Source: Hevea brasiliensis (lineage: Eukaryota > Streptophyta > Magnoliopsida > Malpighiales > Euphorbiaceae). Taken from it: a DNA stretch of 64,000 nt. The DNA is taken from the NCBI RefSeq assembly GCF_030052815.1, contig NC_079499.1, positions 72,679,760 through 72,743,759 of the forward strand, in the 5' to 3' direction. Of the stretch, positions 12,061 to 59,138 are shown piece by piece (position 1 is the first letter of the stretch; every line of letters begins with the position of its first letter). Below the pieces are notes generated by a model. That model saw nothing but the letters and a program-made list of their open reading frames with translations. It was not told the DNA's origin and ran no database searches. The position numbers were made by a program, and so were the translations under genes.

Positions 12061-12066
12061 GAAGTG

Positions 12067-15299: not shown

Positions 15300-17983
15300 C
15301 AATCTAAATGAATGCAATGCCATGGTAAAAACCAACTCAAGTTCAAAATATATTTGGCACTTAAGGTTATGTCATGTTACAGAAGATAGGATTGCAAAAT
15401 TGGAGAAAATGGGGATTCTATCCTCATTGGGCTATGAGCCTACTCCAACTTGTGAATCTTGCCTTCAGGGCAAAATGACTAGATCACCCTTTGTTGGACA
15501 AGGGCTAAGAGCTGAAAATATTTTCGAGCTAATACATAGTGATGTATGTGGTCCATTTAAAGAAATGGCTAGAGGGGGTTTTCATTATTTTATTACCTTC
15601 TTGATGATAAATCAAGGTTTGGGTATTTGTATTTGATGAAATACAAACATGAATCTTTTGAAAAGTTCAAAGAATTTAAATCTGAAGTAGAAAATCAAAC
15701 AGGAAAGAATATTAAAGTTCTTCGATCAGATCGTGGAGGTGAATATTTGAGTACTGAATTTGATGAATACTTGAGAGAGCATGGCATTGTTTCTCAGCTG
15801 ACTCCTCCAGGAACGCCACAGCTGAATGGTGTATCTGAAAGGAGAAATCGCACCCTATTGGATATGGTACGTAGTATGATGAGCTATACTGATATGCCAA
15901 TCTTCTTTTGGGGATTTGCATTAGAATCAGCTTTGTATATTCTGAATAGGATTCCATCAAAATTAGTTTCTTCCACACCTTATGAGATATGGCATGGAAG
16001 AAAACCAAGTCTTAAGCATGTTAAGATTTGTCATCCAAACTTATATCAAAAAGCTGAACACTGATAAATTGGAGACCAAATCAGAAAAAGGTCGATTTGT
16101 TGGATATCCAAAAGATAGTTTTAGATATTATTTTTATTTGCCTACTTCACAAAAGGTTGTGATAAGTAGAGATGTCATATTTCTTGAACAACAGTTTGTT
16201 CAAGAAGGAGGCAAAGGAAGGCAAATAGAGTTAGAATTGGAGAATTCTGACCAACAAGCATCGGATGGATATAGATCCATCTAGTCAACCAATACCCGTT
16301 GATGAAACATCTACACTTGTTCCTCGTAGAACAACCAGGTATCTCACCCACGATGAGATATGGTTTTCTTCATGAAGAAGAACAAGAGTTGTCTACTCAT
16401 AAAGAAGTAGATCATGGAGATTATGCTCTTAACTATGAAGTTGATATATCTGATATAGACTCTTCAAAATTGATTGATGCTACGATATCCGAGTTTGATT
16501 CCATGTTTAAGATTCAAGTTTGGGTTCTTGTTGTCCCACAGAAGGTATTGTACCTATAGGGAACAAATGGGTTTTCAAGAAGAAAATTGGTTACGATGGA
16601 AAGGTAGAGACCTATAAGGCAAGGCTAGTAGCGAAGGGTTTCGCCAAAGGCAAGGAATCGACTATGAGGAGACTTTCTGCTTTGTTGCCATGCTTAAATC
16701 AATTAGGATTTTATTAGCAATTTGCATACTATGATTATGAGATTTGGCGGATGGATGTCAAAGCGACTTTTCTCAATGGATACATTGAAGAAAACATTTT
16801 CATGGAACAACCTAGGGATTTGAATCCCAAGATGGTTCCAAGGTATGCAAGCTAAAGCGGTCCATTTATAGGTTAAAACAAGCTTTGAGGAGTTGGAACA
16901 TCCGTTTTGATGAAGCCATTAAATCCTTTGGTTTTATCAAAAATGAGGATGAGCCATGTGTATATAAGAAGGTTAGTGACAGTGCTATCACTTTCCTTGT
17001 CTTATATGTGGATGACATACTATTGATAGGTAATGACACAGGTATGTTGACAACTATAAAGGTATGGTTGTCAAATACATTCTCCATGAAAGACTTAGGG
17101 GAGGCAACCTATATTCTTGGGATTCGCATCTATAGAGATAAAGCGAAAAGAATAATTGGTTTATCCCAAAGTCTATACTTGGAAAAGGTGTTAAAGAGGT
17201 TTAACATGCTTGATTCCAAGAGAGGATTGTTACCAGTGAGACATGGTATCCACCTTTCTAAAGAGATGTCTCCAAAGACACCTGAAGAAAGAGATAAGAT
17301 GGCCAGGATTCCATATGCTTCGGCTATTGGAAGTTTAATGTATGCAATGTTGTGTACTAAATTTGGATATCGCATATGTCGTTAGTTTGACTAGCGGTAT
17401 CAATCCAATCAGGTTTGGAACATCGATAGTATCAAGAATATCCTTAAGTACTTGAGAAGAACTAAGGATTTATTCTTGATTTATGGAGGTGGAGACTTGC
17501 AATTGGATGGTTATCGATTCGATTTCCAATCGATATCGATGATAGAAAGTCTACCTCTGGATATGTGTTCATTTGTAATGGAGGTGCGATCGGTTGGAAG
17601 AGTTCCAAGCGAGCACGCATTGCAGATTCCACTACGAGGTGAGTATATTCTTGCATCGAGATCTTTGCCAAAAAGAATTTGGATAAAGAAGTTCGTGATG
17701 AACTTACAAGAGTTCCTTCCATTGAGTCAGCAGTTCCATTACATCGTGACAATAATGGAGCGATCATACTGAGCTAAGGAACTAAGGTCTCACCAAAATC
17801 CAAACACATAGAAAGGCACTACCATATTATCAGAGATATAGTTGGGCAAGGCAATATAGCCATGCAGAAAAATAACATCAGCTAAAAAATTCAGCTGATC
17901 CATTCACTAAGCTTTTGTCACAAGTTCAGTTAGATCGACATCTTGAGAAGATGGGTCTAAGGTATTGTAATGAATGGCTCTAG
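15300..17983 (+). pseudogene. Copia-2b pol: integrase, RT, RNase H, decayed
   Basis: The GAG-pre-integrase domain reads WHLRLCHVTED...CESCLQGKM (about 15355-15480) with its two His and two Cys intact. Integrase keeps all three acidic residues in separate frames: HSDVCGP (about 15540), RSDRGGEY (about 15730) and NGVSERRNR (about 15825). RT follows with GNKWVFKKK (16560), FLNGYIEE (about 16770) and the catalytic LYVDDILLIGND (about 17005-17040), then IPYASAIGSLMYAM (about 17310). RNase H is broken after FLIYGGGDLQLDGY (about 17475). The C-terminus LRYCNEWL ends with TAG at 17981-17983. At least four frameshifts make it inactive. Protease is absent, deleted between gag and 15300. Confidence 0.88.
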
Positions 17984-17987
17984 TGCT

Positions 17988-17997
17988 AGTGGGAGAT
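17988..17997 (+). other. Polypurine tract of Copia-2b
   Basis: AGTGGGAGAT sits directly before the LTR start TGTTAGTAG, as in most plant copia elements; it would prime plus-strand cDNA. Confidence 0.85.
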
Positions 17998-20101
17998 TGT
18001 TAGTAGTATGCCCTAGAGCATATCATTTAGTATGTATCTTGTATATATTTTATTAATAAAAGGCATTTCACTTTTCCGTTTACATAATATATTTATGTGT
18101 AATAGAAAAGGTCCATTGATATTTTGTTAGAAATATTATTCTTAAGTTGTTAAGAATATGAGTGACAATATTTCTAGCACAAAGTATCATAAATAGGTTC
18201 ACAATCGAGGATACTTCATAATAAGGACATGACTTATCCAGAAAGATTGTATTCATGTTTGTTCCCAAGTTATTTATATGAGATATAAATAAGATGGAAT
18301 GGTGAGTCTCATGCCATATAACAAACATGATAGGCACTTATAAATGATAAGTAGGCCGAACCAGTGACACTTATGACAAGCACATGGAGTTTACTCTTGT
18401 CAATGTTTTGTCATAAATCATATCAGTGCATATAATCTTTAGACCTGAGATAGCACAATTATCTTGTATATAGGTAGTTTGAGTTTGATACTGCTTTCAT
18501 ACTTGTACTGTGTATGGGTATATGGGCATCTGTTGGCTCCTACTAGTTATATATGAAGGTAGGTGTTGATCAAGATGGAATCTGTTCCTCTAAGTAAATA
18601 GAGATAAAATCCTATGTTCATTTAATTGTTCTTGATGTTTCAAGTTCCTGGCCAGGACAGATAGATTTATTCAGAAAAGAGTTTTTGATGAGAAAAATCT
18701 TTTAATCAAGAACTGGAATTAAAAGAGAACATAATATTCATAGCAAATGGAGTTTGACATAAACCATGACTCCAGCTTGAGTTGGGATTTTGTAACAGAG
18801 AGATTCTAGTGCATGGTAACATATGATTATAGGTTCATTTAAGGTAAACCTTATTACTAATTGGGTAGCCATGGCATGCTATGCTAGGTGTTAACCATGG
18901 TCTATGAGGTTCATAAAATGGTTTAGAGAAATCATTTATGGTAAGAAAGAGTTCTGATGATATTAAGTGTTGATATCATGTCTCATTGCCAATTAGTGAT
19001 GAGCCTAGTAAGTCACACACATACACAAGTTATCACCTAATTAAATATGATTTAATTAATTAATTAAAGAGTTTAATTGATTAATTAAATAGATTTGGTT
19101 TGCAATCAAATTGCAAAGTCCCTAGCATGACTTGAAACCAAATCTAGATTATTGGATGTGTAGTATAAATTAAATTTATATTTAAAGTGTTTAAATATGA
19201 ATTTAATTGATGAGAAATTAATTAATAGAGATTAATTAATTAATTTATATTTGATATAAATTAATTAGAAGAAGAAAATAATTATTTTGGGTTAAGAACT
19301 CAAAATTAAGTCACAGGGGCATTTTGGTCATTTTGCAGTGTGACACGTGGCACCATGAGATGATGACACATGGGATTACACATAAGCTTGCCAAATGTTT
19401 TTTAATCATGTAAGATGATTAAAATCAAGATTAAATATAGGTTTGACACTTGGCACAATGTGATTGGGTCACTTAAACCTAGAGCTAATCAAAGGGTGAC
19501 ATGTGGCAAGGGTTTAATGTGTTAACCTAGCTATTTAAGTGTGGTTATGAAAAGAAAAATAACCAGCAGCCTCTCCTCTCATTTGTCACGCCACTTTGAG
19601 CCTCTCCAGCTATTCCTCTTCATCTCTCATCAATTCAAAGAGATTAGCCATCAATCTCTTGAATTAAGAACACTAGAAATTGTTTCTAGTGTCCTGTTTA
19701 CATCTCTAATCTCTTAAAAGGTAGAACTTGAATTTCTAATTAATAGAAAAGGCTTTAGAAGCTGTTCAAGGGCTGCCATAGGTGTTCTTGGTGTGGACAA
19801 GCTAGAGGGACAACATCTGGTGTCCTGAAGACGAATCTCAAAGGCGCAGACACGCTGCAGCACATCAAGAGGTTTTTGTAATCATTCTTGATTTAATCTA
19901 GGGTTCTAAAATTAATCTGATTAATTTTAAAATCTTAAATGGCAAATACAGATCCAAAAACATATTAAAAGAGTTTTAATATGTTGTTTATCATTGAAAT
20001 CAAATAGATAAAAATAAATCTTGCATGATGCATGTGACCCTAGGTGAAAATTTTTGAATTCAATGGTATAAACTTGTGTTTTTCACGCTTCCGTTCCTTC
20101 A
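17998..20101 (+). repeat. Copia-2b 3' LTR (2104 bp)
   Basis: Starts TGTTAGTAGTATGCCCTAG after the PPT and ends in CGTTCCTTCA. Both ends agree with the reversed copy at 44079-46188. A TTAA-rich run lies near 19055 and a pyrimidine-rich stretch near 19560-19640. No gene in it. Confidence 0.88.
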
Positions 20102-20422
20102 TGAAGTTAGGGTTTTGCTCATGTGATGGTGAATGGAAGTCCTAATGGTCAATTAGCGACCATTTGGCTGTGTTTGATGAGGAATTGAAATGAATTATGG
20201 CTTTGAATTTGAGGTTGGGTATGCTACCTAATAGGACCTGTAGGGCTAGATATGAGCCCAGCAAGTTTGGGCAGTTGTAACTTGAGTGCTGTAGGTTCAA
20301 TTGGTGCAAAGCCAATTAGACATGAAACTAGACACATAATGGCACAACTTTGTTGAAGAAACCTTGCCTAGAAAATAAACTTAGAATACCCTAAAAATTG
20401 ACCAAATTCGGGTAACCAACCT
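20102..20422 (+). repeat. Gypsy A 5' LTR, left segment
   Basis: Contains GGTCAATTAGCGACCATTT and GCCAATTAGACATGAAACTA, which match the interior of the solo LTR S near 39920 and 40075. Its first part is missing at the Copia-2b boundary. It continues at 35990 after the element B insertion; the duplicated target is AACCT (20418-20422) and AACTT (35985-35989). Confidence 0.7.
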
Positions 20423-23400
20423 TGTAACACCCATCACCCGTCTACAGTGTAGCCGAGTAAGGCGTGCTACACGGCGTGCCAGATCACCTAGTCTGTGATT
20501 ATCTCATTTTCTGAACTTAATTTGATTTAAGAAGTCTCTTATGTAAAATTCATATCATACTGGTTCTATTTTCATATTTTAATAAAATCAGTGTTTCAAA
20601 ATAGAAATAAAAATTCGGTAAAGTGTCGTCTGTATTTCGGACAAACTGTCCTTCTAAACCTGTTAAAAACAGTTCAATATGATAATCTCAACCATCCAAC
20701 TAATTTTTTAGTCTCATAATTTCATAATTTCAAAATACAATCCATCATATTTTACATTCATCAAAATACTATCCATAGGAGTTTAATATATACAAATTAT
20801 TACAAACTTTAAAGTTTTATGATATCTATACATATTACATAACAAAATGTCAAAATACAACTGATAGCTCATTACACAAGATCCTAAGTCTTACCATGTA
20901 TGCAGTGTAGTGCAGATGACTCTGGACTCCTGTGCAGATCTGATGTCTCACCCGGTCATAGGTCTGCTGGGCTCCCCAGCTGTGTCTCCAATACCTACGC
21001 GTTACAAAAGCAACGCGCTAAACAATTTTGCTTAGTGGTGCCAAATATAAAGAAATGTACACTAAAATAAAGTAAATGAATTGTTTATGAATTTAAGACA
21101 TCGATATTCTTTGCAGTTGCTGTTTATACTTTTATTTGCTAACATTTCAATTTTTGCTAAATTTGGTGGTGCTGTAATCAGAAGACTGGATTTAGCTATT
21201 TGAATTTAATAATGCTTAAATTAACTACCCGTGTAGCCTATACATTAACCAGACTAGATAAACGAATATACTGGCATTGGGTGCCTAGTACCTCGAGCTG
21301 TCACACCATCAGTCACAAAGTGTCTCCCGGTGTGCAAACAGTATGGCTAAAAGCCATATAGTCAATCTGGCGATAAGGTAAGTATAATAACACAACACGT
21401 ATAGTCGTAGGCTATTAAAGTCACAGTGCGGCATAATATGCCGTAAAAACATAGTATGGCATAAAGCCATTTACAGAATAGCTGTCAAAATCCTATTGGC
21501 ATGCCAACCTATCCAAACTAGTTAACTATGCAAATTAGGGCACATTACAAATTAATTGTTTAATTCTTCATTTTTTTGAGTTTATTAGTTATCATGCAAT
21601 TCACAAGTCAATGTAAATGTTGACCTTTTTAGGTACTATGGATAAGCTAATTCTTGCATCAACATGTCACAATTTATAATTCAATATGCTGTCAATATAG
21701 TGCAATTTACCATTTTTACAAGTTGGCATTCATTGCCAAATTACTTCAAGCATCATTGTATGCAAATGTCAAATTCTTAATTTTAGTGTGCTAGATTAGT
21801 CTAGCTTAATGTCCTATTTCTCTTGGTTTTTAGCTTCTGGTCAAAGAAGAAAAATTGTAGCTCTATGTCTTATTGAACTTTTGGCAAAATTTTAGGTCAT
21901 TTTGAGTTGTATAGACCAAGATATAGTCAATTTACTAAAGCTGGACAGATTGCACCTTTAGTGCAAAAATTGGTCAATTTTAGGTCACATTTAGTTCTGG
22001 CAGTTGTGGTACCCGAACTTGTGTAAGCTATTTGACTTAGTTCTAGCAATTTATGAGCTTTGGTGTCTTCATAATAATTGTAGCTCTATGTCTAAGCTAT
22101 CCATGGTAAAAATTTTAGGTCAATTGGACCTGTTTTGAGTGAGTTATGGTCATCCTAATGACTACTGTTCATATGGTAAAAAATCTGGGTTTGCAAGGTT
22201 GCCATTCCGGATTTGATCATTTTTAAGGTCAGTTTCTAGGCAGAATTTTGGCAATATTTCTACATGAAAGTTGGCCTATTTGGTGTCTAGTTCCTCCCCC
22301 TAATTGGCCTCATACCAATTGGGTTCACAGTTTTGCACTTATGACCTAATTTAGGTGTTGCCAACACACACAACCTGCATTTGAACATTACACTTCCAAT
22401 TTTTACAATCCTCCCCCTTCCAATACTTCAATACTCAATCATGGCACTTCTATGTATATTGTACACAATTCTAGCAAGTATTTTGGGCAGAACACTCAAG
22501 TGCTCAATGCACACAATACACCATTAAAGTTCAATATTTACATCCACCCAAATTCAATGTACATCAACACTTATATTACACATACACTTCCATGGCAATT
22601 ATACAAACTGCCCACAATTTAACACCATCATATTTTATTAATAAATTTCATAAACTCACACACAAATTCATGATATTTAAGGCTACCTAATATGGCAGTT
22701 TACTAAAGCATCAAAGTCTCACTTTTAAACCCTTAATTCAAGCACTAACATACACATCCTTAGACATTAACCTGCTACAACTTCCATTTGAATTAATCAA
22801 CCTTAAATCCCATCTATTAGAGGTAAGAAAAACTCAAATACAACAAACCTTCATGGCTGCCGAAAATGAACAAGTTCATATCTCAATATTTCCTTCCTTT
22901 CTCTTCACCAAATTACTCACCTCAACCTAAACACAAGGTTTACTAAAGCAAGGGAGAGGATTTAGACACTTACCTCTTGAGAGCTTTCTTTAAACTTCCC
23001 CAAATCTTGTTTTTCTTATTGCCAATATCTTCGCCAAGGTGAGTAGGCAAGTTTTAATGAAGGATCCAAGTGGAAATGATGGCTTGATGATGGAGAGAGG
23101 AAGCTTCATGCATGGGCCGCCATGGAGGTTTTGGTTGGGATATTCATTTTGGCAAGATGAAGTTTGATGAAGAAGAAGATGACATTGAGTGGAATCTGCT
23201 GTCCCAAGGTCCCATATGTCTCCCTAATTAGGAGTTAGTGGAGCACTAATCTTATTTTTATTGTTTAATTATTCCAAGTTTCCTAATTTGCAAATTTATC
23301 TCAATTCTTTCATTATTTACATAATGTATTTCATTTTAATTTTTCATGACATTTCCAAAGTGTAATATCATTTATTTTTAATGGACATTGAGGTCAAAAG

Positions 23401-23853
23401 GCAACCCTAGGTGTCAAATGACCAAAATGTCTCTCTTCGGGTTGTATTCCTGATTTTTCGATAACACTGATTTTTGTCTGTTTCTCGATTTTTTATTTTT
23501 TTCTTTGTACTAATTTATTAATTTTTCTTTGATAATTCTAGTGTTAATTATATTTCAATAAACCTTAATTATGTCTTAAAATTTAATTTCGAGGGTTTCT
23601 CACGGTCCTGGGGTCCGCAACGGTCTTTCCGGTGCGGTCACCCATTACTGCGATGCCGGCTCGTTTAACTTAGTTTTATTTTCTCTCTTTTATTTTTCTT
23701 TAATTTTTTTAGTATTTTCTTTTTATTTATTTCATCATTGTATGTCTGTTCACTATCACCAAAGTGTAGTTCCAGATATCCTGACTTGCCTAGACTGATA
23801 TTAGGTCACCGGAGCAACAGAACATACATAACATGTACAGTGGGGATATTACA
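20423..23853 (-). repeat. Gypsy B 3' LTR (3431 bp)
   Basis: Plus-strand ends are TGTAACACCCATCACC and GGGGATATTACA, so on the minus strand it runs TGTAATATCCCC...GGGTGTTACA. It is bounded by the PPT on its right and the target duplication on its left. Its sequence pairs with 28682-35984 apart from the F insertion and a roughly 330-bp segment (about 21573-21907) absent from the other copy. Confidence 0.92.
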
Positions 23854-23886: not shown

Positions 23887-24005
23887 AAATTTACTTGATG
23901 TGAAGAGCTAAGGGAACTATTGCCTCATTGTCTCGTCGCTCTCCCATGTTGCCTCTTCCGTATTGTGGTGCCTCCATAGGATTTTCACCAGTGGAATTGT
24001 CTCTT
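23887..24005 (-). pseudogene. Gypsy B chromodomain tail
   Basis: Minus strand encodes IPLVKILWRHHNTEEATWES, the C-terminal chromodomain-like motif (aromatic W, then ATWE) of plant chromoviruses. This module targets integration to particular chromatin in related elements. Two TAG stops follow near its end; the natural stop TGA is at 23884-23886. Confidence 0.8.
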
Positions 24006-24627
24006 TTCTGAGCTCTTTTACCTCTCATGCCAAGATTTTAATCGGTTCTTCTTCTTATGTCAAGTCAGGTTGTACAATAATTTCTTCTGCTAAGATGACA
24101 TGGGAAGGATCTGATCTGTATCTTCTGAGCATCGAGACATGGAACACATTTTATATCTTGTCCAGCTCAGGTGGTAAGGCTAATCTGTAGGCTACTAGTC
24201 TCACACGTTCAATAACTTCATATGGGCCAATGAACCTAGGGCTTAATTTTCCCTTTTTCTCGAATCTCAACACTTTCTTCCACGGTGATACATTGAGAAA
24301 TACCTTCCCGCCAACTTCATACTCAATGTCCTTTCTTTTTAAGTCAGCATAAGATTTTTGTCGGTCTGAGGCAACTTTCAAATTAGCCTTTATCAGTTTT
24401 ACCTTTTCCTCTATCTATTTTACCAGGTCTGGCCCCACTAGCTTATTTTCACCTAATTCTGTCCAACGTACAGGTGTTCTGCATTTTCTCCCATACAGTG
24501 CTTCATAGGGTGCCATTTTTATGCTAGCTTGATAGCTATTGTTATATGCAAATTCTGCCAGTGGAAGGTATTTGTCCCAACTTCCCTCAAACTCAATAAC
24601 ACAACTCCTCAGCATATCCTCGAGGAC

Positions 24628-24707
24628 CTATCACATATGTTCAGTTATTATTATCATTATCAGTTCAATTTATTATTTATAATAACTCAATGAGTTTCAA
24701 AATTTAC
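24628..24707 (-). other. Intron-like 80-bp insertion in gypsy B integrase
   Basis: On the minus strand the integrase reading ERIIQ is followed by CAG|GTAAAT, 80 AT-rich bases, then TGATAG|GTCCTC, where the reading resumes as VLEDMLRSC. Removing 80 bases restores the frame; reading through gives VNFETH and a TGA. The same place in gypsy D has a 74-bp insertion with the same ends, and gypsy C has none. Confidence 0.75.
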
Positions 24708-27391
24708 CTGGATTATTCTTTCTGACTATCCATCCATCTGAGGATGAAAAGCCGTAATAAAATGGAGTTGTGTGCCCAAGGATTCTTGTAATTTCTTCTA
24801 AAATCTAGATGTAAACCTCAGGTCTCTATAAGATATAATGGAAAGTGAAATTCCATGTAGTCTAACTATCTCACTAATGTATAATTGTGCTAGCTTTTTC
24901 AATGAATAGTCAGTTCTGACTGGCAAAAAATGTGCTGATTTGGTCAACCTATCCGCAATCACCCATACTGCATCATGCTTCTTCTGAGTGAGAGGCAGAC
25001 CACTGACAAAGTCCATAGTGATTCGGTCCCATTTCCATTCAGGTATGTTTATGGGCTATAACAAACCTGATGGAACTTGATGTTCTGCTTTGACTTGCTG
25101 ACATGTCAAGCATCTAGTTACATAGTCAGCTATGTCCTTCTTTATACCCGGCCACTAGTATCGAAGTTTCAGGTCATGGTATATTTTTGTGCTTCTTGGG
25201 TGCATAGTATACATATTGTTATGTGCTTCTTTCAGAATACTAGTTTTCAACTCTTTATCATTTGGTACACACACTCTTTCTTTATAGTATAGGCACCCAT
25301 TTTCTTTCACTTCAAATTCAGTTTCCTTTTCCTCAGTGATTTTGCCCATAACAGCCATTAATTTCTCATCTGTCTTCTACCCATCTTGTATCTGTTGTAA
25401 CAGATTCGGCTTCACTTGCAACTCAGCCAAAATAACTCCGTCATGAGTTAAGGACAGTTGGGCATTCAGAGATCTTAATGCTACAATAAATTTTCTGCTT
25501 AAAGCATCAGCGACTATGTTTGCCTTCCCAGGGTGGTAGTCAATCACACAATCATAATCTTTTAGGAATTCAATCCATCGCCTCAGTCTCAAATTAAGTT
25601 CCTTCTGGGTTGGTAGATACTTCAGACTCTTATGGTCTGTGTATATGTAGCATTTTTCTCTATACATGTAATGCCTCCATATCTTCAATGCGAAGATAAT
25701 TACTGCTAACTCTAAATCATGAGTAGGGTAATTCTTTTCATGTGGCCTTAACTGCCTGGAAGCATATGCAACCACTTTCTCTTTTTGCATGAGTAAACAC
25801 CCTAACCCATTATGTGAGGCATCACTGTAGACTACAAAGTCTTTTCACGACACTGGTTATGTTAATGCTGGTGCCTCTGTCAACATAGCCTTCAGCCTCT
25901 CAAAACTGGCTTGACACTTGTCATTCCAGTCAAATTTCATATTTTTGTGTAGTAATTTGGTCATTGGAGCAGCTATCAGGGAAAATCCCTTTACAAATCT
26001 TCTATAATATCCAGCTAACCCCTAGAAACTTCTGATCTCAGTTTTATTTCTGAGAGGCTTCCATTCCATCACTGCTTCAATCTTCTTGGGATCCACTCTA
26101 ATCCCATCAGCTAATACTACATGTCCAAGGAATGCAATCTCATTCAACCAGAACTTAGACAATTTAGCATACAGTTTCTTCTCTTTTAGAGTTTACAGAA
26201 CAATTCTCAAATGCTCATCATGTTCTTCTTTATCCTTGGAATACACCAGGATGTCATCAATGAAGACCACTACGAACCGATCTAAGTATGGATGGAAGAT
26301 ATGGTTCATAAGGTCCATGAATGCTGCTGGAGCATTTGTTAACCCAAATGGCATCACCAGGAATTCATAATGCCCATACCGGGTTCTAAATAGAGTCTTA
26401 GGCACATCTGCATCCTTAACCCTTAGCTGATGATACCCTGATCTGAGATCAATCTTAGAAAACACACCGGCTTCCTTCAACTGATCAAACAGATCGTCAA
26501 ATCTAGGCAACAGATACTTGTTCTTCACAGTTACTTTGTTTAACTGCTAGTAGTCAACATATAACCTTAGTGTCCCATTTTTCTTCTTTACAAACAATAT
26601 CGGAGCTCCCCACGGTGACACACTGAGGTGTATGAACCCCTTGTCTAGTAATTCTTGCAGCTAGATTTTTAAATCTTTCAATTCAGCAGGTGCCATCCTA
26701 TATAGAGCAATTGAAATTGGAGCTGTACTCGGCATAATCTCAATAGCAAATTCAATTTCCCTTTCTGGTGGCAAACTAGGCAATTCCTCAGGAAATATCT
26801 CAGAGAAATCCCTTACTGTGGGTATGTCAACAAGTCAAATTTACCCTGCCTAGTATCAACCACGTGTGCCAGATAGGCTTCACACCCTTTTCTCATCCAT
26901 CTCCTTGCAACTGTAGCTGAGATGACATTGGACGAGAAATCTGTCCTTTCACCCACAACTGTTATTTCTTCGTTCTCAATAGTTTTTAGAAAGATTCTCT
27001 TCAATTTACAATCTACTATTGCCTGATGATGGGATAGCCAATCCATTCCCAAAATCACATCAAACTCATGGAAAGGCAGTTCGATTAAGTCTGCTGAGAA
27101 CACTTTCCCTTGAATCTTCAATGTATAGCCCTTATATACCTTGTTTACTATCACACTGTGGCCTAACGGATTTGTGACCCGGATGTCTTGGTCACTTTCC
27201 TCTATTGGTATTCCCTTTTCTATGGGCAGCTTGATACAAATATATGAATGAGTAGACCCAGGATCCACTAATGCATGCACAAAAGTATTATAGAGGGGGA
27301 ACGTACCCTTGATGACATCTGGGGCATCTTGTTCCTCCTGTGCCCTTATAGCATCTGCTCTGGCTGGTTTTCTACCTTCTACTCTCCCCAC

Positions 27392-28557
27392 AGACTCTGA
27401 TACAGGTTTCTGTAAAGCACCGGCTGCCTCAGCCTTACTTGGCTTTCTACCCCTTGGAGCTGGAGGGGCAGGCCTATCAGTTGATACCGGAGTAGATGTA
27501 GCAGTTCTGCACGGACAATCTTAGATTAGGTGGTCTGTAGACCCACACTGTAAACAAACACCTATCATCCTCCAACATTTACCCTTATGCCATTTTTGGC
27601 AATGTGGGCAAGCAACAGATACTGTTGGGGCTGGTCCCCTGAACCCTGTCCCTAGAGAGCTAGCCACTGAAGGTGCTGACTGGCCTCTCCTCGGTGCAAA
27701 ATGAGATTTGGGCCTCTGTGACTAACCCTGACTTGGTGCTCTACTGAACTCTGAGTAGGCGAACCTCTGAACTTCTTACTAGGGGCAGAAGATGGACTGG
27801 TTTGACCTTGACCTCTTTTCTGTTGTCTGTCCCTTCTGTTCTGCTTATTCATTCTAACTTTTTCAACCTTCAGTGCGGCTTCCACTAACTTGGCAAACTC
27901 TGTAATCCCCAAGGCTGTAATCATTACTTTAATGTTATCATTGAGTCCTTCCTCAAATCTCTTGCATCTCTCGGCCTCATTAGGGACTATTTCCCCCCCA
28001 TAGTGGCTCAGTCTGCCAAATTCTCTTTCATATTCAGCCACTATCAACTGTCTCTGGCGTAGGGTAATAAACTCCCTTCTTTTCTCTTCCAGGTATACAC
28101 TGCCCACATACTTCTTTCTGAACTCATTGAGAAAGAAATCCCAAGTTATTTGTTCTGGTGACACCTCACTAGTTACTGTATCCCACCATTGGTATGCATC
28201 ATCTTACAGTAGTGATATAGTAGCTTCCAAATTCTATTTTGGAGTACAATGAAGTTGTTTCAAGACTCTTCTAGTTCTGTCCAACCAGTTTTTGGCTGTG
28301 ACAAAATCATCTTCCCTTTTGCCCAGAAAATCCACTGCTCCAAACTTTCTAAGTTTCTCCATATGAGATTTTTGATGTAGAGGTGGTGGTGGTGGCATAA
28401 CTCCTGCTACTTGTCTAAAGAACTCAACCATTTGCTGAAATGTGGTTGGTGCATCTAGTACTAGTGGAGCAGGTTCCCTCCTGTCTCCTGGTTCAGTCAT
28501 AGATGTAGCATGACTTTCCACCTCTTCATCGACCGCTCTCTGCGATATGGAGTCCAT
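27392..28557 (-). pseudogene. Gypsy B gag
   Basis: Starts at ATG 28555-28557 with MDSISQRAVDEEVE, close to the gag start of element A. Retrotransposon gag domain motifs are LRKFGAVDFLGKREDD, AYQWWDTV, ITWDFFLNEFRKKYV and EYEREFGRLSHY, followed by ERCKRFEEGL. The nucleocapsid part (about 27535-27620) has a non-canonical CPHCQKWHKGKC and a CCHC knuckle CLQCGSTDHLI*DC with a nonsense codon. It would form the particle and bind element RNA. A frameshift and two stops lie between the 28234-28557 and 27652-28164 parts. Confidence 0.88.
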
Positions 28558-28664
28558 ATTCTGATCAAAATAACAAATTAAAAGATCTTCATTAGAGTCA
28601 TCTTAACACTTACAATGCAATGCATGATATGCAATCTATCTAGGTCCAAAAATGCCTAAACCGT

Positions 28665-28676
28665 GCTCTGATACCA
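28665..28676 (-). other. Primer-binding site of gypsy B, initiator-Met tRNA
   Basis: Minus strand reads TGGTATCAGAGC, a perfect match to the common plant PBS, five bases after the 5' LTR end. Confidence 0.92.
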
Positions 28677-28681
28677 TTAAA

Positions 28682-29590
28682 TGTAACACCCCTCACCCGT
28701 CTACAGTGTAGCCGAGCAAGGCGTGCTACACGGCGTGCTGGAGCACCTAGTCTGTGATTATCTCATTTTCTAAACTCAATTTGATTTAAGAAGTCTCTTA
28801 TGTAAAATTCATGTCATACTGGTTCTATTTTCATACTTTAACAAAATCAGTGTTTCAAAATAGTAATAAAAATCCGATAAGGTACCGTCTGTATTTCGGA
28901 CAAACTGTCCTTCTAAATCTGTTAAAAATAGTTCAATATGATAATCTCAACCATCCATTTAATTTTTCAGTCTCACAATTTCATAATTTCAAAATACAGT
29001 CCATCATAATTTACATTCATCAAAACACTATCCATAGGAGTTTAATATATACAAATTATTACAAACTTTAAAGTTTTATGATATCTATACATATTACATA
29101 ACAAAATGTTAAAATAAAATTGATAGCTCATTACACAAGATCCTAAGTCCTACCATGTATGCATTGTAGTACAGATGACACTGGACTCCGGTGCAGATTT
29201 GATGTCTCACCCGGTCGTAGGTCTGCCGGGCTCGCCAGCTGTGTCTCCAATACCTACACGTTACAAAAGTAACGCGCTAAACAATTTTGCTTAGTGGTAC
29301 AAAATATAAAGAAATGTACACTAAAATAAAGTAAATAAATTGTTTATGAATTTATGACATCGATGTTCTTTGCAGTTGTTGTTTATACTTTTATTTGCTA
29401 ACATTTCAATTTTTGCTAAATTTGGTGGTGCTGTATGTCAGAAGACTGGATTTAGCTATTTGAATTTAATAATGCTCAAATTAACTGCCCGTGTAGCCTA
29501 TACACTGACCAGACTGGATAAACGGATATACTAGCACTAGGTACCTAGTATCTCGGGCAGTCACACCATTGGTCACAAAGTGTCTCCCGG
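28682..29590 (-). repeat. Gypsy B 5' LTR, left segment
   Basis: Begins TGTAACACCCCTCACCCG on the plus strand and parallels 20423 onward. It is broken at 29590 by gypsy F, and the LTR sequence resumes at 33791. Confidence 0.92.
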
Positions 29591-32500
29591 TGTAACACCT
29601 CTATGTTCGGTAGTGCGTTCTACTGTTCCAATGATCAGTGTTGTCCGGACAGCTAGAATGCCTAGAACTAAACTTCGATATGAGTGAGGAGACATAAAAT
29701 AATGAAATACAAAAAAAGAAAATACAAGAAAAACAAAGGAAAAATAATAGTAAAGAAATGCAACCATGTTAAGCGAGCCGAGACCCTAGCGATGGGTGAC
29801 TGCATCGGGAAGTCACGGCGTGGACCGTTGACTAGCTCTAGACCGCGGGGAACCTTGGAAAATATTTTTAGGACTTAAATAGACCCCTATTGAGGTATAA
29901 ATACCATAAGAAATATTAAATAAAAATTAAATAATTAGTACAAATAAAAGTGAGAAATCGAAAAACGGACAAAACCCGATGTTATCGAAAAATCGAGAAT
30001 GCAACCCTAACAGGAGCATTGTGGTCATTTGACATCCCGAATTGTCTTTTGACCTAAATGTCCATTAAAAATAAATAATATTATACTTGGAAAATATAAT
30101 GAAAAATTAATTTAGGGGTACCTAATATAAATAGTAAAAATGGAGGGTAAATTGACTAATTATCACATTTAAACATAAAATATAATTGATTTTGTGTAAG
30201 TGGACCACTAAGGAATATAATATGTAATTAGTGGGCAGATTACTCCACTCAACATCTTCATCTTCCTCAATTCACTCACCATTGCCGAAAATCCAAAAGC
30301 TTTCAATCCTCCCATCGCCACCCAAATGCATGGCCCTTTACACCCATTTTCAAGCTATATTTTCTTTACTTATCTTCATTAAAAGTGTTCTATACATCAT
30401 GGGCAGTAGATAGGCAGCAAGAAATGAAAGTTTTTGTGGAGTTTTGAAGAATTTCCAAAGTGGTAAGTTTGTATTTTTGATTATTGCTTTGTTAAAGTTT
30501 GTAAGGATATTATGGGTATTTGATTTATGGAGAAATTTTTGAGTTTTGATGTTGAATGGGAATGTGCACTTTTGGCAGCCATGGAAGCACCTTGAAGGCA
30601 GTTTAATTGTGCTTGTAAATGGTGAATTAAATGATTGATTAAATGTATATTGTGTAGGAAATTGTTTGGGTGATGTATACTTAGTATATGTAAATGTAAA
30701 ATGAGATTTGAAGCGTGGAAAGTAATGGAATGTAAGTGTACCATTGTGGTAGTTTGCTAAATTTTGAGGAATGCTGGAATTCATGCTTGGTTTATGGAAT
30801 AATGATGTTAAAATGTGTTGGTTGTTATGACAGTTTGAGTGTATGTATGGTGGTGTGAAGTGGGACATGTAAATGAGCATGAATTGGTGATTGAATTGTT
30901 GTAAATTGAATTGGACAAATTCTGCAGTTGTTGGTGCACATTGAATGTAATTGTAAGCTGCCAAAATGGCCTATAATATGTTGTAAATTATGTTTAGGTT
31001 GTGGTATAACCAGAATTAGTTTGAATGTTAAGTTTGGTGAGTGTTAAAAGTGATGTTTGATATGTATGCAAGAATTGTAATAAGGCAGTTTGAGTTTTAG
31101 GCCTAGAACTTTAATTATGTGGCTCCAATTGGTATGAGACCAATTGGAGGTGAAACTAGGCACAAAATGTGCTAACTTTCATGAAGAAATCTTACTAAAA
31201 TTCTGCTTGCAAGGTAGCTTGAAAAATGACCAAATCCGGATTAAGTGCAAGTAAGGCCAGAAAATTGACCATTTGGGCAGAAGTTAGTGTTTAGGCCATA
31301 ACTCACTCAAAACAGGTCCAATTGACCTGAAAGTTTAACCATGAATAGTTAAGACCCATATCTACAAGTCTTATGAAGACATCAAAGCCCAGAAATGACT
31401 ATAAGTAAGTCAAACAACTTGCACAAGTTCGGGTCTAAAAACTGGCCGAACCTAAAATGACCTAAAATGACCTAAAGTGACCAATTTTGGTGCAATTTGA
31501 CCAGCAATAGTAAAATGACCATAACATGGTCTACATAACTTAGAATGACCTGAAATTTTGCCCCGCGTTCCATAAGACATAGATCTACAAGTTTGTAGTT
31601 TTGACCGAAACCCGAAAACCGAGGGAACTAGGTCGTCCGGCTAGGTCAAACTAGTATCCCGGAATCCAGTAAATTGCAAGAAAACGCAAAATACATAGAA
31701 ATGAATTTGGTAACATGTACCAACCCTAAAATACTATCGAATGTGACATATTAATAACATTAAAACCTAATTTACCTAGAATGCATCGAGGGTCGACATA
31801 TTAGGGTGACTAAGCAAATATTAGAATTCAGTGAATTAATTATAAAGCCTTATTGTTAGAGACAGTTTAATTTAGTGCTGAAACACTTCAAATTGTGTTT
31901 CTCAGTTAGCAAAGGCTCAGGAAAAGGGAAGGAAACACTGAATCAAGACCAGGAGACAGTTATCAGAGGTTTGTGCACAACAACTATTTCTTTTGAATTT
32001 TTCAATTGAAATGAATTATGACTATTTGTACATTATTGTTTTATATTGTGGAAATGTGTTTGAATGAATATTTATTGCTTAAAAAGCATTGTAAATGATT
32101 TGAAATTTGTGAAAAATTATTTGAATGATATTGATGGATACTGATTGATTGAAAAGCATTGGAAATGATTTGAAACCACAGCTATCATGTATATTGATTG
32201 TATTCCTCGCTAGCTTGTCTAGTGGGACGAATTGAATTCCCTCTCTGGTTGAAGTGTTGAGGTGTGTGCCTGTTGAGGACGAATTGGATGAGTACTCATA
32301 TTTTTACTAGCTAGCTATGTTATTCCTCATTAGTCATTGACTTTTGGGACGAATTGAATACCTCATTAGCCATCGGCTTTTGGGACGAATTGAACTTTGG
32401 AACATGATTAAGCTGTGTGTGATTTATTGATATGTATTGTGAGATTGTAAAATGAATTTAAATTCTTATTGACATTCACTGTCTTTTAAATTTAACTATG

Positions 32501-33288
32501 TTTTGATTTCTGAGTTTTATTGTGATATTGTGTTAAATTCCTTCTGACATTCATTGTCTTGAATTTAACTATGATTTTACGTATCCATCATTTATATGAT
32601 TTATGAATTGTGATTTAAAGTTATATTTGGTTAATGTTATGCACCACTGAGACATTGTCTCAGCGATAGCTTTTTATTGCTGTCGCAGGTAGACAGACGG
32701 ACAGGGCAGCAGACTAGGCTGCTAGTACATCCAGCGAGAGATTTTCGGGTATAAGGAGTATACCACATTTTGCATTTTGTACTGTAATGTATGTTCACTG
32801 TATGTACATATTGTTTTTGGTTTTGAGCAGTTGTAAATTAAAATTGTACATTGAAGTTGTAAAGTAAATTATGAGTTATTTTGACTTGTAAAAATTGTAT
32901 TATATTTCTTTTATCTCAGTCTTTGAAAAATCACTGTGGATTTGAATTGAGAAATATGTTGTGTTGAGAAATATGTTGGAGTTGAGATTTGGAAATATAT
33001 TGAAGTGCTTTTTACAGGTTTTCTGAAGAACTATTTTATTCAAAATACAGATGGCACTCTGCCAAAATTTTTATAGAAATTCTAATTAATTCAAATGTGT
33101 TAGTTCTATCACTTCTGTTCAAAAAGGTTTTTAACACCTGTAAATAGTGCTCACCACTGTAAAAGAAGTAAGAAAAGTTTTTAAAATCCCTTGTAGTGTA
33201 TTTAATGGGTTATCAGTAGACGGAGTTGGTAATTCATTAGGTATACTACGGGATCATGTCATGCCTTACAGAGGGGTAGGGTGTGACA
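29591..33288 (+). repeat. Gypsy F 5' LTR (3698 bp)
   Basis: Starts TGTAACACCTCTATGTTCGG and ends GGGTAGGGTGTGACA, followed by the PBS. It is the same family as solo LTR G (47996-51771). It includes CCAATTGG-TATGAGA-CCAATTGG at 31125-31147 and several ~200-bp modules (31100-31560). Long antisense open frames here are low-complexity and not genes. Confidence 0.92.
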
Positions 33289-33296
33289 TGTTTTAG

Positions 33297-33308
33297 TGGT
33301 ATCAGAGC
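33297..33308 (+). other. Primer-binding site of gypsy F, initiator-Met tRNA
   Basis: TGGTATCAGAGC, perfect, nine bases after the LTR end. Confidence 0.92.
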
Positions 33309-33477
33309 TAGTTTTTAAATTCTGTTTTCACATGTTACTTGAATATTCTTTCTTCATAGTACAACTGCTCAATATCATTGTTTGATACATACAGTACATT
33401 ACATTATAAATATGCACTAACGGGAGGAAATCTCCTTGTGTTATTTGTTCAGGAGATCTAAAATCCTTGCATTGACT

Positions 33478-33754
33478 ATGGAAGAGGGTGATCATTCAGT
33501 CGATCAATCTATTGAGGCTGAGGTGCAAGGGGATGCCCCAGGCCTACACAATGTCAGTGGTTCAAGAAGACTACCGCAGCGATCGCAGCTTCTGCTCAGT
33601 TCGCTCAGCAGATGGCTGCAATGTTCCAACAAATGGCTGGTAATGTGCCTACTCAAGTCCCAATACAGACACCAGTGGTACAACCGCAGTCTCCTACTAG
33701 GCAGTATGATAAATTGATTAAGTATGGGGCTACAAAGTTCAAGGGGACAGTAGA
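33478..33754 (+). pseudogene. Gypsy F gag stub
   Basis: Starts MEEGDHSVDQSIEAEVQ, nearly the same as the gag start of gypsy E (59954). The reading shifts frame after about 35 codons; the other frame still contains KYGATKFKG-like sequence near 33720-33745. It then runs directly into the 3' LTR end at about 33755. No zinc knuckle is present. The fragment could not make a working capsid. Confidence 0.85.
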
Positions 33755-33785
33755 GTCATGCCTTACAGTGGGGTAGGGTGTGACA
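33755..33785 (+). repeat. Gypsy F 3' LTR, terminal remnant
   Basis: GTCATGCCTTACAGTGGGG... up to TGACA matches the last bases of the 5' LTR (33258-33288) with one or two differences. Confidence 0.85.
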
Positions 33786-33790
33786 CCCGA

Positions 33791-35984
33791 TGTACAAATA
33801 GTGTGGCTAAAAAGCCATATAGTCAATCTGGCGATAAGGTAAGTATAATAACACAACACGTATAGCCGTAGGCTATTAAAGTCACTGTGCAACATAATAT
33901 GCCGTAAAAGCACAGTATGGTATAAAGCCATTTACCAAACAGTTGTCAGAATCCTATTGGCATGCCAACCTATCTAAACTAGTTAACTAGGCAAACTAGG
34001 GCACATTACAAATTAATTATTTAATTCTTCATTCTGAGTTGTATAGACCAAGATATGGTCAATTTACTGAAGCTGGACAGATTTCACCTTTTGTGCAAAA
34101 TTTGATCAATTTTAGGTCATATTTAGTTCTGGTAGTTTTTGTACCTGAACTTGTGCAAGCTATTTGACTTGGTTCTGGCCATTTTTGGGCTTTGGTGTCT
34201 TCATAAGAATTGTAGCTCTATGTCTAAACTATCAATGGTAAAAATTTCAGGTCAATTAGACCTGTTTTGAGTGAGTTCTGGTCATCCTAATGACTACTGT
34301 TCATATGGTAAAAAATCTGAGTTTGCAAGGTTGCCATTCCGGATTTGGTAATTTTTAAGGTCAATTTCTAGGCAGAATTTTGGCAACATTTCTTCATGAA
34401 AATTGGCCTATTTAGTGTCTAGTTTCACCCCCCTTTGGCCTCATACCAATTGGGTTTACAGTTTTGTACTTATGACCTAATTTAGGTGCTGTCAACACAC
34501 ACAACCTGCATTTGAATATTACACTTCCAATTTTGACAATCCTCCTCCTCCTAATACTTCAATATTCAATCCTGGCACTTCTATGTATATTGTACACAAT
34601 TCTAGCAAGCATTTTGGGCAGAATACTAAAGTGCTCAATGCACAGAATACACTATTAAAGTTCAACATTTACATCCACCCAAATTCAATGTATATGAATA
34701 CTTATATTACACATACACTTCCATGGCAATTATACAAACTGCCCACAATTCAACACCATCATATTTCATTAATAAATTTCATAAACTCACACACAAATTC
34801 ATGATATTTAAGGCTACCTAGCATGGCAGTTTACTAAAGCATCAAAGTCCCACTTTTACACCCTTAATTCAAGCACTAACATACACATCCATAGATATTA
34901 ACCTACTACAACTTCCATTTGAATTAATCAATCTTAAATCCCATCCATTAGAGGTAAGAAAAACTCAAATATAACAAACCTTCATGGCTACCGAAAATGG
35001 ACAAGTACATATCTCAATATTTCCTTCCTTTCTCTTCACCAAATTACTCACCTCAACCTAAACACAAGGTTTACTAAAGCAAGGGAGAGGATTTGGACAC
35101 TTACCTCTTGAGAGCTTTCTTAAACTTCACCAAATCTTGTTTTTCTTGTTGCCAATAACTTACGCAAGGTGAGTAGGCAAGTTTTAATGAAGGATCCAAG
35201 TGGAAATGATGGCTTGATGATGGAGAGAGGAAGCTTCATGCATGGGCGGCCATGGAGGTTTTGGTTGGGATATTCATTTTGGCAAGATGAAGTTTGATGA
35301 AGAAGAAGATGACATTGAGTGGAATCTGCTGTCCCAAGGTCCCATATGTCTCCCTAATTAGGAGTTAGTGGAGCACTAATCTTATTTTTATTGTTTAATT
35401 ATTCCAAGTTTCTTAATTTGCACATTTATCTCAATTCTTTCACTATTTACATAATGTATTTTATTTTAATTTTTCATGACATTTTCAAAGTGTAATATCA
35501 TTTATTTTTAATGGACATTGAGGTCAAAAGGCAACCCTAGGTGTCAAATGACCAAAATGTCCCTTTTCGGATTGTATTCGTGATTTTTCTGTAACACCGA
35601 TTTTTGTCTGCTTCTCGATTTTTCATTTTTTTCTTTGTACTAATTTATTAATTTTTCTTTGATAATTCTAGTGTTAATTATATTTCAATAAACCTTTAAT
35701 TATGTCTCAAAATTTAATTTCGAGGGTTCCTCGCAGTCCTGGTGTCGGCAACGGCCTTCCCGGTGCGGTCACCCATCGCTGCGGTGCCGGCTCGTTTAAC
35801 TTAGTTTCATTTTCTCTCTTTTATTTTTCTTTAATTTTTCTAGTATTTTCTTTTTATTTATTTCATCATCATATGTCTGTTCACTATCACCGAAGTGTAG
35901 TTCCAAATATCCTGACTTGCCTGGACTGATATTAAGTCACCGGAGCAACAAAACATACAGAACACATACAGTGGGGATGTTACA
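33791..35984 (-). repeat. Gypsy B 5' LTR, right segment
   Basis: Resumes TGTACAAATAGTGTGGC, the counterpart of 21339 onward in the other LTR, and ends GGGGATGTTACA. Compared with that copy it lacks about 330 bp at about 34033. No gene; open frames are shadows. Confidence 0.9.
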
Positions 35985-46188: not shown

Positions 46189-46201
46189 ATCTCTCACCAG
46201 C
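46189..46201 (-). other. Polypurine tract of Copia-2d
   Basis: Minus strand GCTGGTGAGAGAT directly before TGTTAG; one base differs from the GGGAGAT form of Copia-2b. Confidence 0.75.
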
Positions 46202-46202
46202 A

Positions 46203-56414: not shown

Positions 56415-56443
56415 ACTCTTCCCCTCTAAGAAAAATTTCGTCC
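56415..56443 (-). other. Polypurine tract and GAGGACGAAATTT block of gypsy D
   Basis: Minus strand reads GAGGACGAAATTTTTC then TTAGAGGGGAAGAGT immediately before the LTR. Confidence 0.85.
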
Positions 56444-56449
56444 TCAAAA

Positions 56450-56575
56450 TTTTCCTGATGCAAACAGTTGAGGGAACTATTGCCTCATCATCTCTTCACT
56501 TTTCCAAGTTGCCTCTTCAGTGTTGTGGTGCCTCCAAAGCACTTTCACCAATGGAATTTATTTATTTCTCAGTTC
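56450..56575 (-). pseudogene. Gypsy D chromodomain tail
   Basis: Minus strand IPLVKVLWRHHNTEEATWKS followed by QLFASGKF and TGA at 56444-56446, with TAA and TAG codons inside. Same module as in gypsy B, in the same position relative to the PPT. Confidence 0.8.
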
Positions 56576-57162
56576 CTTCACTTCTCGAGCTAGGATCTGT
56601 ATAGGTTCTTCTGTGTATGTCAAGTCCAGTTGGATCTCAATCTCTTCCATGGAAATGACATGTGAAGGATCTGAGCGATATCTTCTCAGCATAGAAACAT
56701 GGAATACATTATGAATTTTATCCAGTTCTGGTGGTAAAGCTAGCCGATAGGCCACTGGTCTCACACGTTCAATGACTTCATATGGGCCAATGAACCTAGG
56801 GCTTAACTTACTCTTTCTTCCAAATCTCAGTACTTTCTTCCACGGTGAGACTTTGAGAAACACCTTATCGCTAACTGCATACTCTATCTCTTTTCTCTTC
56901 AAGTCGGCATAAGATTTCTGTCTATCTGAGGCAATCTTCAGATTAGTTTTGATTATCTTCACTTTTTCCTCAGTCTGTTTCACCAGGTCTAGTCAATCCA
57001 ACACACTGGGGTTCTACATTTCCTCCCATACAGTGCTTCATACGGGGCCATTTGGATGCTAGCTTGATAGCTGTTGTTGTATGCGAATTCTGCCAGTGGG
57101 AGGTATCTATCCCAACTCTCCTCAAACTCAATGACACAACTCCTTAGCATATCCTCCAGGAT

Positions 57163-57236
57163 CTATCACATAATTCACATTGTTACTATCATTTCAATTT
57201 ATTAATTGCGAAAATTCAATTAGTTCTTAGGTTTAC
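57163..57236 (-). other. Intron-like 74-bp insertion in gypsy D integrase
   Basis: Minus strand: reading ERVIR ends CGG|GTAAAC; 74 AT-rich bases; TGATAG|ATCCTG resumes as ILEDMLRSC. Position and ends match the 80-bp insertion of gypsy B (24628-24707). Both end in ATGTGATAG, and both give six codons and TGA if read through. Confidence 0.75.
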
Positions 57237-59138
57237 CCGAATTACTCGTTCTAACTGTTTATCCGTCTGAGGATGAAAAGCCGTGCTAAAGCGGAGTTGT
57301 GTGCCCAAGGCTTCTTGCAACTTTTTCTAGAATCTCGATGTAAACCTTGGGTCTCAATCAGATATGATGGAAAGTGGGATTCCATGTAGTCTAACTATCT
57401 CATTGATATACAATTCTGCTAGCTTCTCCAGTGAGTAGTCAGTCCTAACTGGCAGAAAATGTGCTGACTTCGTCAATCTATCTACTATCACCCGCACTGC
57501 ATCATGCTTCTTTTGGATGAGAGGTAGACCACTAACAAAATCTATAGTGACCCGGTCCCATTTCCATTCAGGTATGCTTATAGGCTGTAGCAATCTTGAT
57601 GGAACTTGATGTTCTGCTTTAACTTGCTGACATGTTAAACACTTAGTCACATAGTCAGCTATATCCCTCTTCATACCAGGCCACCAATAATGAGGCTTCA
57701 AATCATTATACATTTTCGTGCTTCCCAGGTGAAAAGCATAAACACTAGTGTGTGCTTCTTTCAGAATTCTCGTCTTCAGTTCCCCATCATCTGGTACGCA
57801 CACTCTTCCTCTGTAGTACAGACACCCATCTGCTTTCACCTCATATCCAGTTTCCTTTCCCTCTGGAATTTTACCTACAATGGCCATTAATTTTTCATCT
57901 GCCCTCTGCCCATGTTGTATCTGCTATAGCAGAGTTGGCCTCACTTGCAACTCAGCGAAAATAGCTCCATCTTGAGCTAAGGATAGATAGGCATTTAGTG
58001 ATTTTAAAGCTGTGATGGACTTCCTGCTCAAAGCATCAGCAACTACATTTGCCTTCCTAGGATGATAATCTATCACACAATCATAGTCCTTTAGGAACTC
58101 AATCCATCGCCTCTGTCTAAGATTGAGCTCCTTCTGGGTTGGCAAATATTTTAGACTTTTGTGGTCTGTATATATGTAGCTTTTTTCACCATATAAATAA
58201 TGCCTCCATATCTTCAGTGCGAAGATGATTGCTGCTAACTCCAAGTCATGAGTAGGGTAGTTCTGTTCATGTGGCCTTAATTGCCTGGAAGCATAAGCGA
58301 CCACTTTCCCCTCTTGCATTAATACACACCCTAGCCCATTATGTGAGGTATCACTTTAGACCACAAAATCTTTTCCCGACACTGGCTGTGTTAACACTGG
58401 TGCTTCTATCAATATAGCCTTTAGCCTCTCAAAACTGGCTTGGCACTTGTCGTTCCAGCCAAATTTCACATTCTTGTGCAATAACTTGGTCATTGGAGCA
58501 GCTATAAGAGAAAACCGCTTCACAAATCTTCTGTAATACCCAGCTAGCTCCAAGAAACTTCTGACCTCAATTGTATTTCTAGGAGGCTTCCATTCCATCG
58601 CTGCTTCTATCTTTTTGGGATCCACTCTAATCCCCTCAGCTGATACTATGTATGCAAGAAAGGAGATTTCACTCATCCAAAAGTCACACTTGGATAGCTT
58701 AGCATACAGCTTCTTTTCTCGCAGGGTTTGCAGAACAATCCTCAAATGTTCATCATGTTCTTCCCTGGTCTTGGAATATACCAGAATATCATCAATAAAT
58801 ACCACTACAAACCGATCTAAGTATGGATGGAAGATACGGCTCATAAGGTCCATAAATACTGCTGGTGCATTTATTAACCCAAACGGCATCACTAGAAATT
58901 CATAATGCCCATACCGGGTTCTGAATGCAGTTTTTGACACATCTGTATCCTTTACCCTCAACTGATGATACCCTAATCTGAGATCAATTTTTGAAAATAC
59001 ACCGGCTCCCTTCAACTGATCAAACAGATCGTCAATTATGGGCAATGGATATTTATTCTTCATAGTTACTTTGTTCAACTGCCGATAATCAATACACAAT
59101 CTCAAGGTTCCATCCTTTTTCTTCACAAATAGCACCGG

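What the first reader, a model, noticed from the sequence alone, without database searches (positions are those of the whole stretch)
24628..24707. Short GT-AG intron splits gypsy B integrase between catalytic core and chromodomain tail
The reading ERIIQ | VLEDML is contiguous in related integrases but here is separated by 80 AT-rich bases with CAG|GTAAAT and GATAG ends. Everything for catalysis lies upstream (zinc region, three acidic residues), while the GPY/F module and chromodomain lie downstream. Inference: splicing would decide whether the integrase carries its chromatin-targeting tail, and unspliced genomic RNA would keep the intron through retrotransposition. This is the strongest candidate for an unusual system here. 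Introns have been reported in some plant LTR elements, so I do not claim it is new.
Basis: partly seen in the sequence, partly recalled or inferred. Interest (0 to 1): 0.75.

Follow-up and report, generated by a model that had tools for sequence, protein, structure and literature searches.

The report
Intron inside a plant retrotransposon integrase
A jumping gene in this plant genome carries what looks like a short intron in the middle of its DNA-inserting enzyme, and a second, diverged copy nearby carries the same intron at the same spot, which suggests that the element kept the intron through many rounds of copying.

Summary
The 80-bp AT-rich GT...AG insert (24628-24707, minus strand) lies between ERIIQ and VLEDML of a decayed chromodomain-type Ty3/gypsy element. 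A second copy in the window (56.2-59.1 kb, about 80% identical) carries a homologous 74-bp insert at the same codon boundary, with GTAAA and TATGTGATAG ends identical. The two closest upstream relatives in the database end at the same point (SERVIQ|VNN); 189 of the 190 fetched proteins that span the site are ungapped there. Between the two window copies pN/pS is 0.22 upstream and 0.13 downstream, so protein-level selection acted on both sides although every frame of the insert has stops. Simplest reading: an intron removed for translation and kept in the RNA that is copied. Splicing itself is not shown. One claim fails: the insert lies inside the helix that carries the catalytic Glu, with about 55 residues of the core after it, so retention would truncate the core, not merely drop the chromodomain. 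Spliced plant LTR elements are known (Ogre, CRR, BARE1, EVADE); I found none reported with an intron in the integrase. New variant of a known kind.

The parts
24628..24707 (-). Intron-like insert of copy B: 80 bp, CAG|GTAAAT...GATAG|GTC, phase 0, closed in all frames
24708..25400 (-). Copy B, integrase side upstream of the insert (zinc-binding part and core up to SERIIQ); 5 stops, all TAG
23893..24627 (-). Copy B, side downstream of the insert: VLEDML..., rest of core, SH3_Tf2-1 (GPY/F-like) module at 24151-24414, chromodomain-like end by alignment to P0227; 6 stops
57163..57236 (-). Homologous intron-like insert of copy C: 74 bp, CGG|GTAAAC...GATAG|ATC
57237..57929 (-). Copy C, integrase side upstream of the insert; 3 stops
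56453..57162 (-). Copy C, side downstream of the insert; carries a 25-bp deletion relative to copy B
20423..23853 (-). 3' LTR of element B
28682..35984 (-). 5' LTR of element B, split by other sequence at about 29594-33779; flanking 5-mers of the element AACCT and AACTT
28665..28676 (-). Primer binding site TGGTATCAGAGC, 5 nt from the 5' LTR
   Evidence: its match to initiator-Met tRNA is recalled
25377..28602 (-). Upstream part of element B in broken pieces: Gag (Retrotrans_gag), aspartic protease (RVP_2), RT (RVT_1), RNase H

Best explanation
The insert is a short spliceosomal-type intron carried by one lineage of plant chromodomain-type Ty3/gypsy elements. Shown by sequence: the same position, the same ends and homologous sequence in two copies that differ by a synonymous distance of about 0.8-1.3, with protein-level constraint on both sides; close relatives whose reading frame breaks at the same point. 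Inferred: some transcripts are spliced and give complete integrase, while unspliced transcripts are the ones copied, which keeps the intron in the lineage. If unspliced RNA is translated it gives an integrase cut inside the helix of the catalytic Glu. Whether retention is used to lower the amount of integrase or is merely tolerated is open. The confidence given is for the intron reading as a whole; the dosage use is rated in the section on the most novel reading.
For: Copy C has a homologous insert at the same boundary: 54 of 74 compared bases identical, 6 gap columns, GTAAA and TATGTGATAG identical. Differences between B and C by codon position 35/27/70 upstream (p=7e-6) and 30/17/94 downstream (p=1e-16). 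pN/pS 0.22 (bootstrap 0.16-0.31; 224 of 231 codons) upstream, 0.13 (0.09-0.18; 229 of 245) downstream, 0.07 (0.02-0.16; 55 of 55) for the core remainder; the LTR pair of element B, as a control in an arbitrary phase, gives 43/41/33. P0001 and P0002, the two best hits upstream, end SERVIQ|VNN. B, C, P0001, P0002, P0021 and P0073 form one group of 26 sequences with support 0.998. The insert is 80% and 75.7% AT, 80 and 74 nt long.
Against: No RNA evidence. Both copies are dead, with 11 stops in the two B pieces and 5 in the C pieces counted, and they share two stop positions (RF*KK and RQ*FP), which could mean a dead common ancestor. Copy C's upstream edge is CGG, not CAG. Branch-point-like motifs are weak and not at the same place. 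Apart from its ends the insert is not clearly slower than fourfold sites (20 of 74 against 48 of 125, p=0.12; transversions p=0.21). P0001 and P0002 are only two sequences, possibly of one species, and their DNA could not be read. Breaks near the site also arise otherwise: 16 of the 94 pattern-less proteins end one codon before it, and P0178 and P0086 end close after it.
Confidence: 0.8

Rival explanations
1. A non-spliced insertion that disabled the integrase of a non-autonomous lineage, which spreads with integrase supplied by other elements.
For: Both window copies are broken and no spliced RNA has been seen. BARE2 is a known element that parasitises its partner's Gag (PMC3735527, passages seen).
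Against: pN/pS of 0.13 downstream and 0.07 for the core remainder is not expected if the part after the insert were unused. The insert also has GT-AG edges and intron-like composition and length.
Confidence: 0.1
2. The insert entered one copy that was already dead, and B and C descend from it by DNA duplication or gene conversion.
For: Two stop positions are shared by B and C.
Against: B and C differ by about 20% with a strong third-position excess, which a dead sequence would not show. P0001 and P0002 are open up to the site without the shared stop at RF*KK. P0166 and P0187, outside the group, also end at SRF, so that codon seems prone to decay. In copy C it reads TTC|TAG, compatible with loss of a CTG site; in copy B it reads TTT|TAG, which does not show it.
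Confidence: 0.06
3. The downstream part is translated separately from the ATG five codons after the insert, giving a split integrase without splicing.
For: P0227, P0228 and P0234 begin at that Met, and TGATAG stops stand directly before the downstream side in B and C.
Against: The Met is part of the LEDML motif of contiguous relatives, and 24 of 120 downstream hits start there, so it is not specific. The core would be cut inside a helix.
Confidence: 0.02

Closest known systems
Ogre (Ty3/gypsy, Tat lineage)
   [quoted passage not shown] here the insert lies inside the integrase. Ogre belongs to a lineage without chromodomains.
BARE1 and EVADE (Ty1/copia)
   Same: Alternative splicing of a short intron; BARE1 uses separate RNA pools for translation and copying (PMC3735527, PMC12786077, passages seen).
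   Different: There splicing creates a stop and gives a Gag-only message; here splicing would remove stops and complete the integrase.
CRR (centromeric gypsy element of rice)
   Same: A spliced plant gypsy element (PMC3735527, passage seen). That it belongs to the chromodomain elements is recalled.
   Different: CRR splicing removes rt and makes two reading frames.
Tekay/Del clade of plant chromodomain elements
   Same: Long LTRs (here 3.4 kb; sugar beet Bongo elements 2561-3000 bp, one truncated to 1049, PMC3605345, passages seen) and a chromodomain after the integrase.
   Different: No intron in the integrase is mentioned in the passages seen of PMC3605345 and PMC6317226. The clade was not tested with named references.

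Membership tests
Spliceosomal GT-AG intron | GT at the start and AG at the end, at a precise boundary between coding parts | tested here: met
   Both copies, same codon boundary
Spliceosomal GT-AG intron | AT/U-rich composition and a length usual for plants | tested here: met
   80% and 75.7% AT, 35% and 32.4% T, 80 and 74 nt; the usual length range is recalled
Spliceosomal GT-AG intron | branch-point sequence | tested here: inconclusive
   CTGAT at -36 in B; CTAAT at -61 and TTAAT at -43 in C
Spliceosomal GT-AG intron | removal from RNA | not testable with these tools
   No RNA reads available
Plant chromodomain Ty3/gypsy element | Gag, protease, RT, RNase H, integrase in gypsy order | tested here: met
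   Pfam matches in order on the minus strand; the rve core is matched only weakly, below its cut-off, in relatives
Plant chromodomain Ty3/gypsy element | chromodomain at the integrase C-terminus | tested here: inconclusive
   Chromo passes its cut-off in relatives P0227 (26.1) and P0284 (25.9), not in P0228 (21.5; cut-off 25.1); the broken window copies were not scanned there
Tekay/Del clade | position in a tree with named clade references | not tested
   No named references were used
Ogre-type intron | intron between the protease and RT reading frames | tested here: not met
   This insert is inside the integrase
BARE1/EVADE-type splicing | splicing near the end of gag that gives a Gag-only message | tested here: not met
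   This insert is far downstream of gag; a further intron near gag was not sought

The most novel reading that the evidence does not exclude
An integrase dosage switch: intron retention ends translation inside the catalytic helix, so unspliced RNA yields Gag, protease, RT and RNase H with a dead integrase, while splicing yields complete chromodomain integrase. The host spliceosome would set the ratio of RT to integrase and separate translated RNA from copied RNA, in a lineage that has kept the intron for a long time.
Probability: 0.35. Interest if true: 0.68.

Novelty: new variant of a known kind. Interest (0 to 1): 0.52.

Why it matters
An intron in a retroelement is lost whenever a spliced RNA is copied. 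A lineage that keeps one inside its integrase must separate translated from copied RNA, or gain from partial splicing. Ogre and BARE1 tune Gag against Pol; this would tune integrase against the rest of Pol. Two diverged copies in one window make the question testable with ordinary RNA reads and a genome-wide survey of the family.

Tried and rejected
The genome search on the window's own genome was asked 14 times with the same request; each time the machine was busy or could not be reached, so the family could not be surveyed in its genome. Viral contigs were scanned three times: no relatives found.

Considered and rejected: a private late insertion into one dead copy (copy C has it); an insert that is constrained along its length (not significant against fourfold sites); a start at MLRSC as proof of the insert (24 of 120 start there). 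The first dN/dS script failed in its exon-2 bootstrap; one search replaces it. The exon-2 tree used a wrong frame for the copy C piece; one search replaces that tree. The predicted model is weak overall (mean pLDDT 51.5, pTM 0.43; 224 of 404 residues under 50). I use only the core, residues 55-204, where ten-residue blocks are 46-85; the block holding the site (151-160) is 56.

Sampling: the 345 proteins are the best 120 listed by each of three searches (105 new ones in the second), out of 7,891, 7,967 and 7,975 that passed. By the pattern count on the first 225, 117 were contiguous, 4 ended within 5 residues after the site (P0001, P0002, P0086, P0178), 10 were other and 94 did not match the pattern. 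The trees used chosen subsets: 24 proteins plus two window pieces and 23 plus two.

Literature: searches found no report, among the listings and the passages I opened, of an intron in the integrase of an LTR element. One search searched six exact phrases and gave three papers; PMC2533021 (passage seen) is about an Ogre family, and the other two were judged by title. I saw listings only for most papers; passages of PMC6317226, PMC12786077, PMC3605345, PMC2864245, PMC2832683, PMC12477816, PMC2533021, PMC3735527 and PMC5718144. The held library lacks most subscription papers, and PMC2596294 on Ogre splicing is not held.

The count of genome-search runs was corrected from 15 to 14.

Full report
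Setting. The insert lies in a decayed LTR retrotransposon on the minus strand (element B). Its LTRs are 20423-23853 and 28682-35984, the second split by other sequence at about 29594-33779. The ends are TG...CA, the flanking 5-mers are AACCT and AACTT, and TGGTATCAGAGC lies 5 nt inside the 5' LTR. Pfam recognises Gag, aspartic protease, RT and RNase H in separate open pieces, and the SH3_Tf2-1 module downstream of the insert; two of the seven pieces scanned, one of them in the integrase, had no match. Over 1,956 compared sites the LTRs are 94.0% identical.

The observation. At 24628-24707 the minus strand reads ...AATCCAG|GTAAATTTTG...ATGTGATAG|GTCCTCGAG.... The insert is in phase 0, is not a multiple of three, has stops in all frames, and is the most AT-rich 80-nt stretch of 23893-28600.

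It is shared. The window holds a second copy (C, 56230-59129), 79.7% identical over 2,945 aligned columns. It has 74 bp at the same boundary; 54 of 74 compared bases agree with B's insert, with 6 gap columns, and GTAAA and TATGTGATAG at the ends are identical. A different gypsy lineage in the window has no insert there.

Selection on both sides. Between B and C, differences fall at codon positions 1/2/3 as 35/27/70 upstream and 30/17/94 downstream. pN/pS is 0.22 (0.16-0.31) upstream, 0.13 (0.09-0.18) downstream and 0.07 (0.02-0.16) for the 55 codons right after the insert; the LTR pair, in an arbitrary phase, gives 43/41/33. As both copies carry the insert, this constraint most simply acted while it was there: the protein on both sides was in use although no frame runs through the insert. 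This is the main argument for splicing. It is an inference, not an observation of spliced RNA.

Relatives. Of 345 proteins fetched, 190 span the site and 189 do so without a gap. The two best upstream hits, P0001 and P0002 (82% and 86% identical to the copy C query), from different collections, are open through the integrase and end SERVIQ|VNN. VNN is what GTNAAYAAY before a stop would give, compatible with the GTAAAY of the window copies, but their DNA could not be read. The close downstream relatives P0227, P0228 and P0234 (87%, 86% and 77%) begin at MLRSC, as expected if stops precede, although 24 of 120 downstream hits start there. P0021, P0073, P0271 and P0284 fall in the same groups but do not reach the site. 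In trees, B, C, P0001, P0002, P0021 and P0073 group with support 0.998; downstream, B, the C piece, P0227, P0228, P0234, P0271 and P0284 group with 0.939. P0284 is named as a Hevea brasiliensis protein and pairs with copy C at 0.842, so the host may be Hevea or a relative; this was not tested otherwise.

Where it cuts the enzyme. In the contiguous relative P0240 the site is after Q159. The catalytic Glu is E155; that it is the third acidic residue is recalled, and it aligns with the E of SERTIQ in Ty3 (7q5b) and of GKVER in PFV integrase (3l2q). The PFV alignment runs on to residue 214 of P0240 and the Ty3 alignment to 333. The predicted model puts residues 153-171 in one helix, followed by helices 176-189 and 199-204 (a weak model, with the site in a block of pLDDT 56). 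Retention would therefore cut the catalytic helix and remove about 55 residues of the core together with the SH3 module and chromodomain.

Mechanism. Most likely transcripts are partly spliced: spliced RNA makes complete integrase, unspliced RNA is copied. Whether retention is a dosage device or merely tolerated cannot be told from sequence.

Against. Both copies are dead and share two stop positions. I attribute these to recurrent decay at CTG/CAG sites, since P0166 and P0187, outside the group, also end at SRF; but at RF*KK only copy C still shows a C before the stop. Copy C's upstream edge is CGG. Branch-point motifs are weak. The insert's rate is not clearly below neutral. Breaks near the site also occur for other reasons: 16 of the 94 pattern-less proteins end one codon before it, as a CAG-to-TAG change would give.

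Known cases. [quoted passage not shown] passages seen). I found no report of an intron in the integrase; the held library lacks most subscription papers.

Noticed in passing
window 23893-25400 and 56453-57929, minus strand: Stops are mostly TAG (8 of 11 in the B pieces, 3 of 5 in the C pieces counted), several where relatives have Gln or Trp: the mark of C-to-T decay at CAG/CTG sites, probably methylated.
   Followed up: partly
window 24620-24715: In copy B the insert is flanked by AGGT on both sides, which fits a proto-splice site or a 4-bp duplication made at the original insertion.
   Followed up: no
window 11401-12120, plus strand: A third, decayed gypsy integrase of another lineage (48-49% identical to relatives), contiguous at the site.
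   Followed up: partly
window 29591 and 59139: Two elements starting TGTAACACC are both inserted directly after CCGG, one in the LTR of element B and one in the RT region of copy C; possibly a target preference.
   Followed up: no
window 50043-50243: A 100-bp unit repeated twice in tandem (94% matches).
   Followed up: no
window 44075-46399 and 17775-20105: A 2.3-kb inverted repeat, 88% identical.
   Followed up: no
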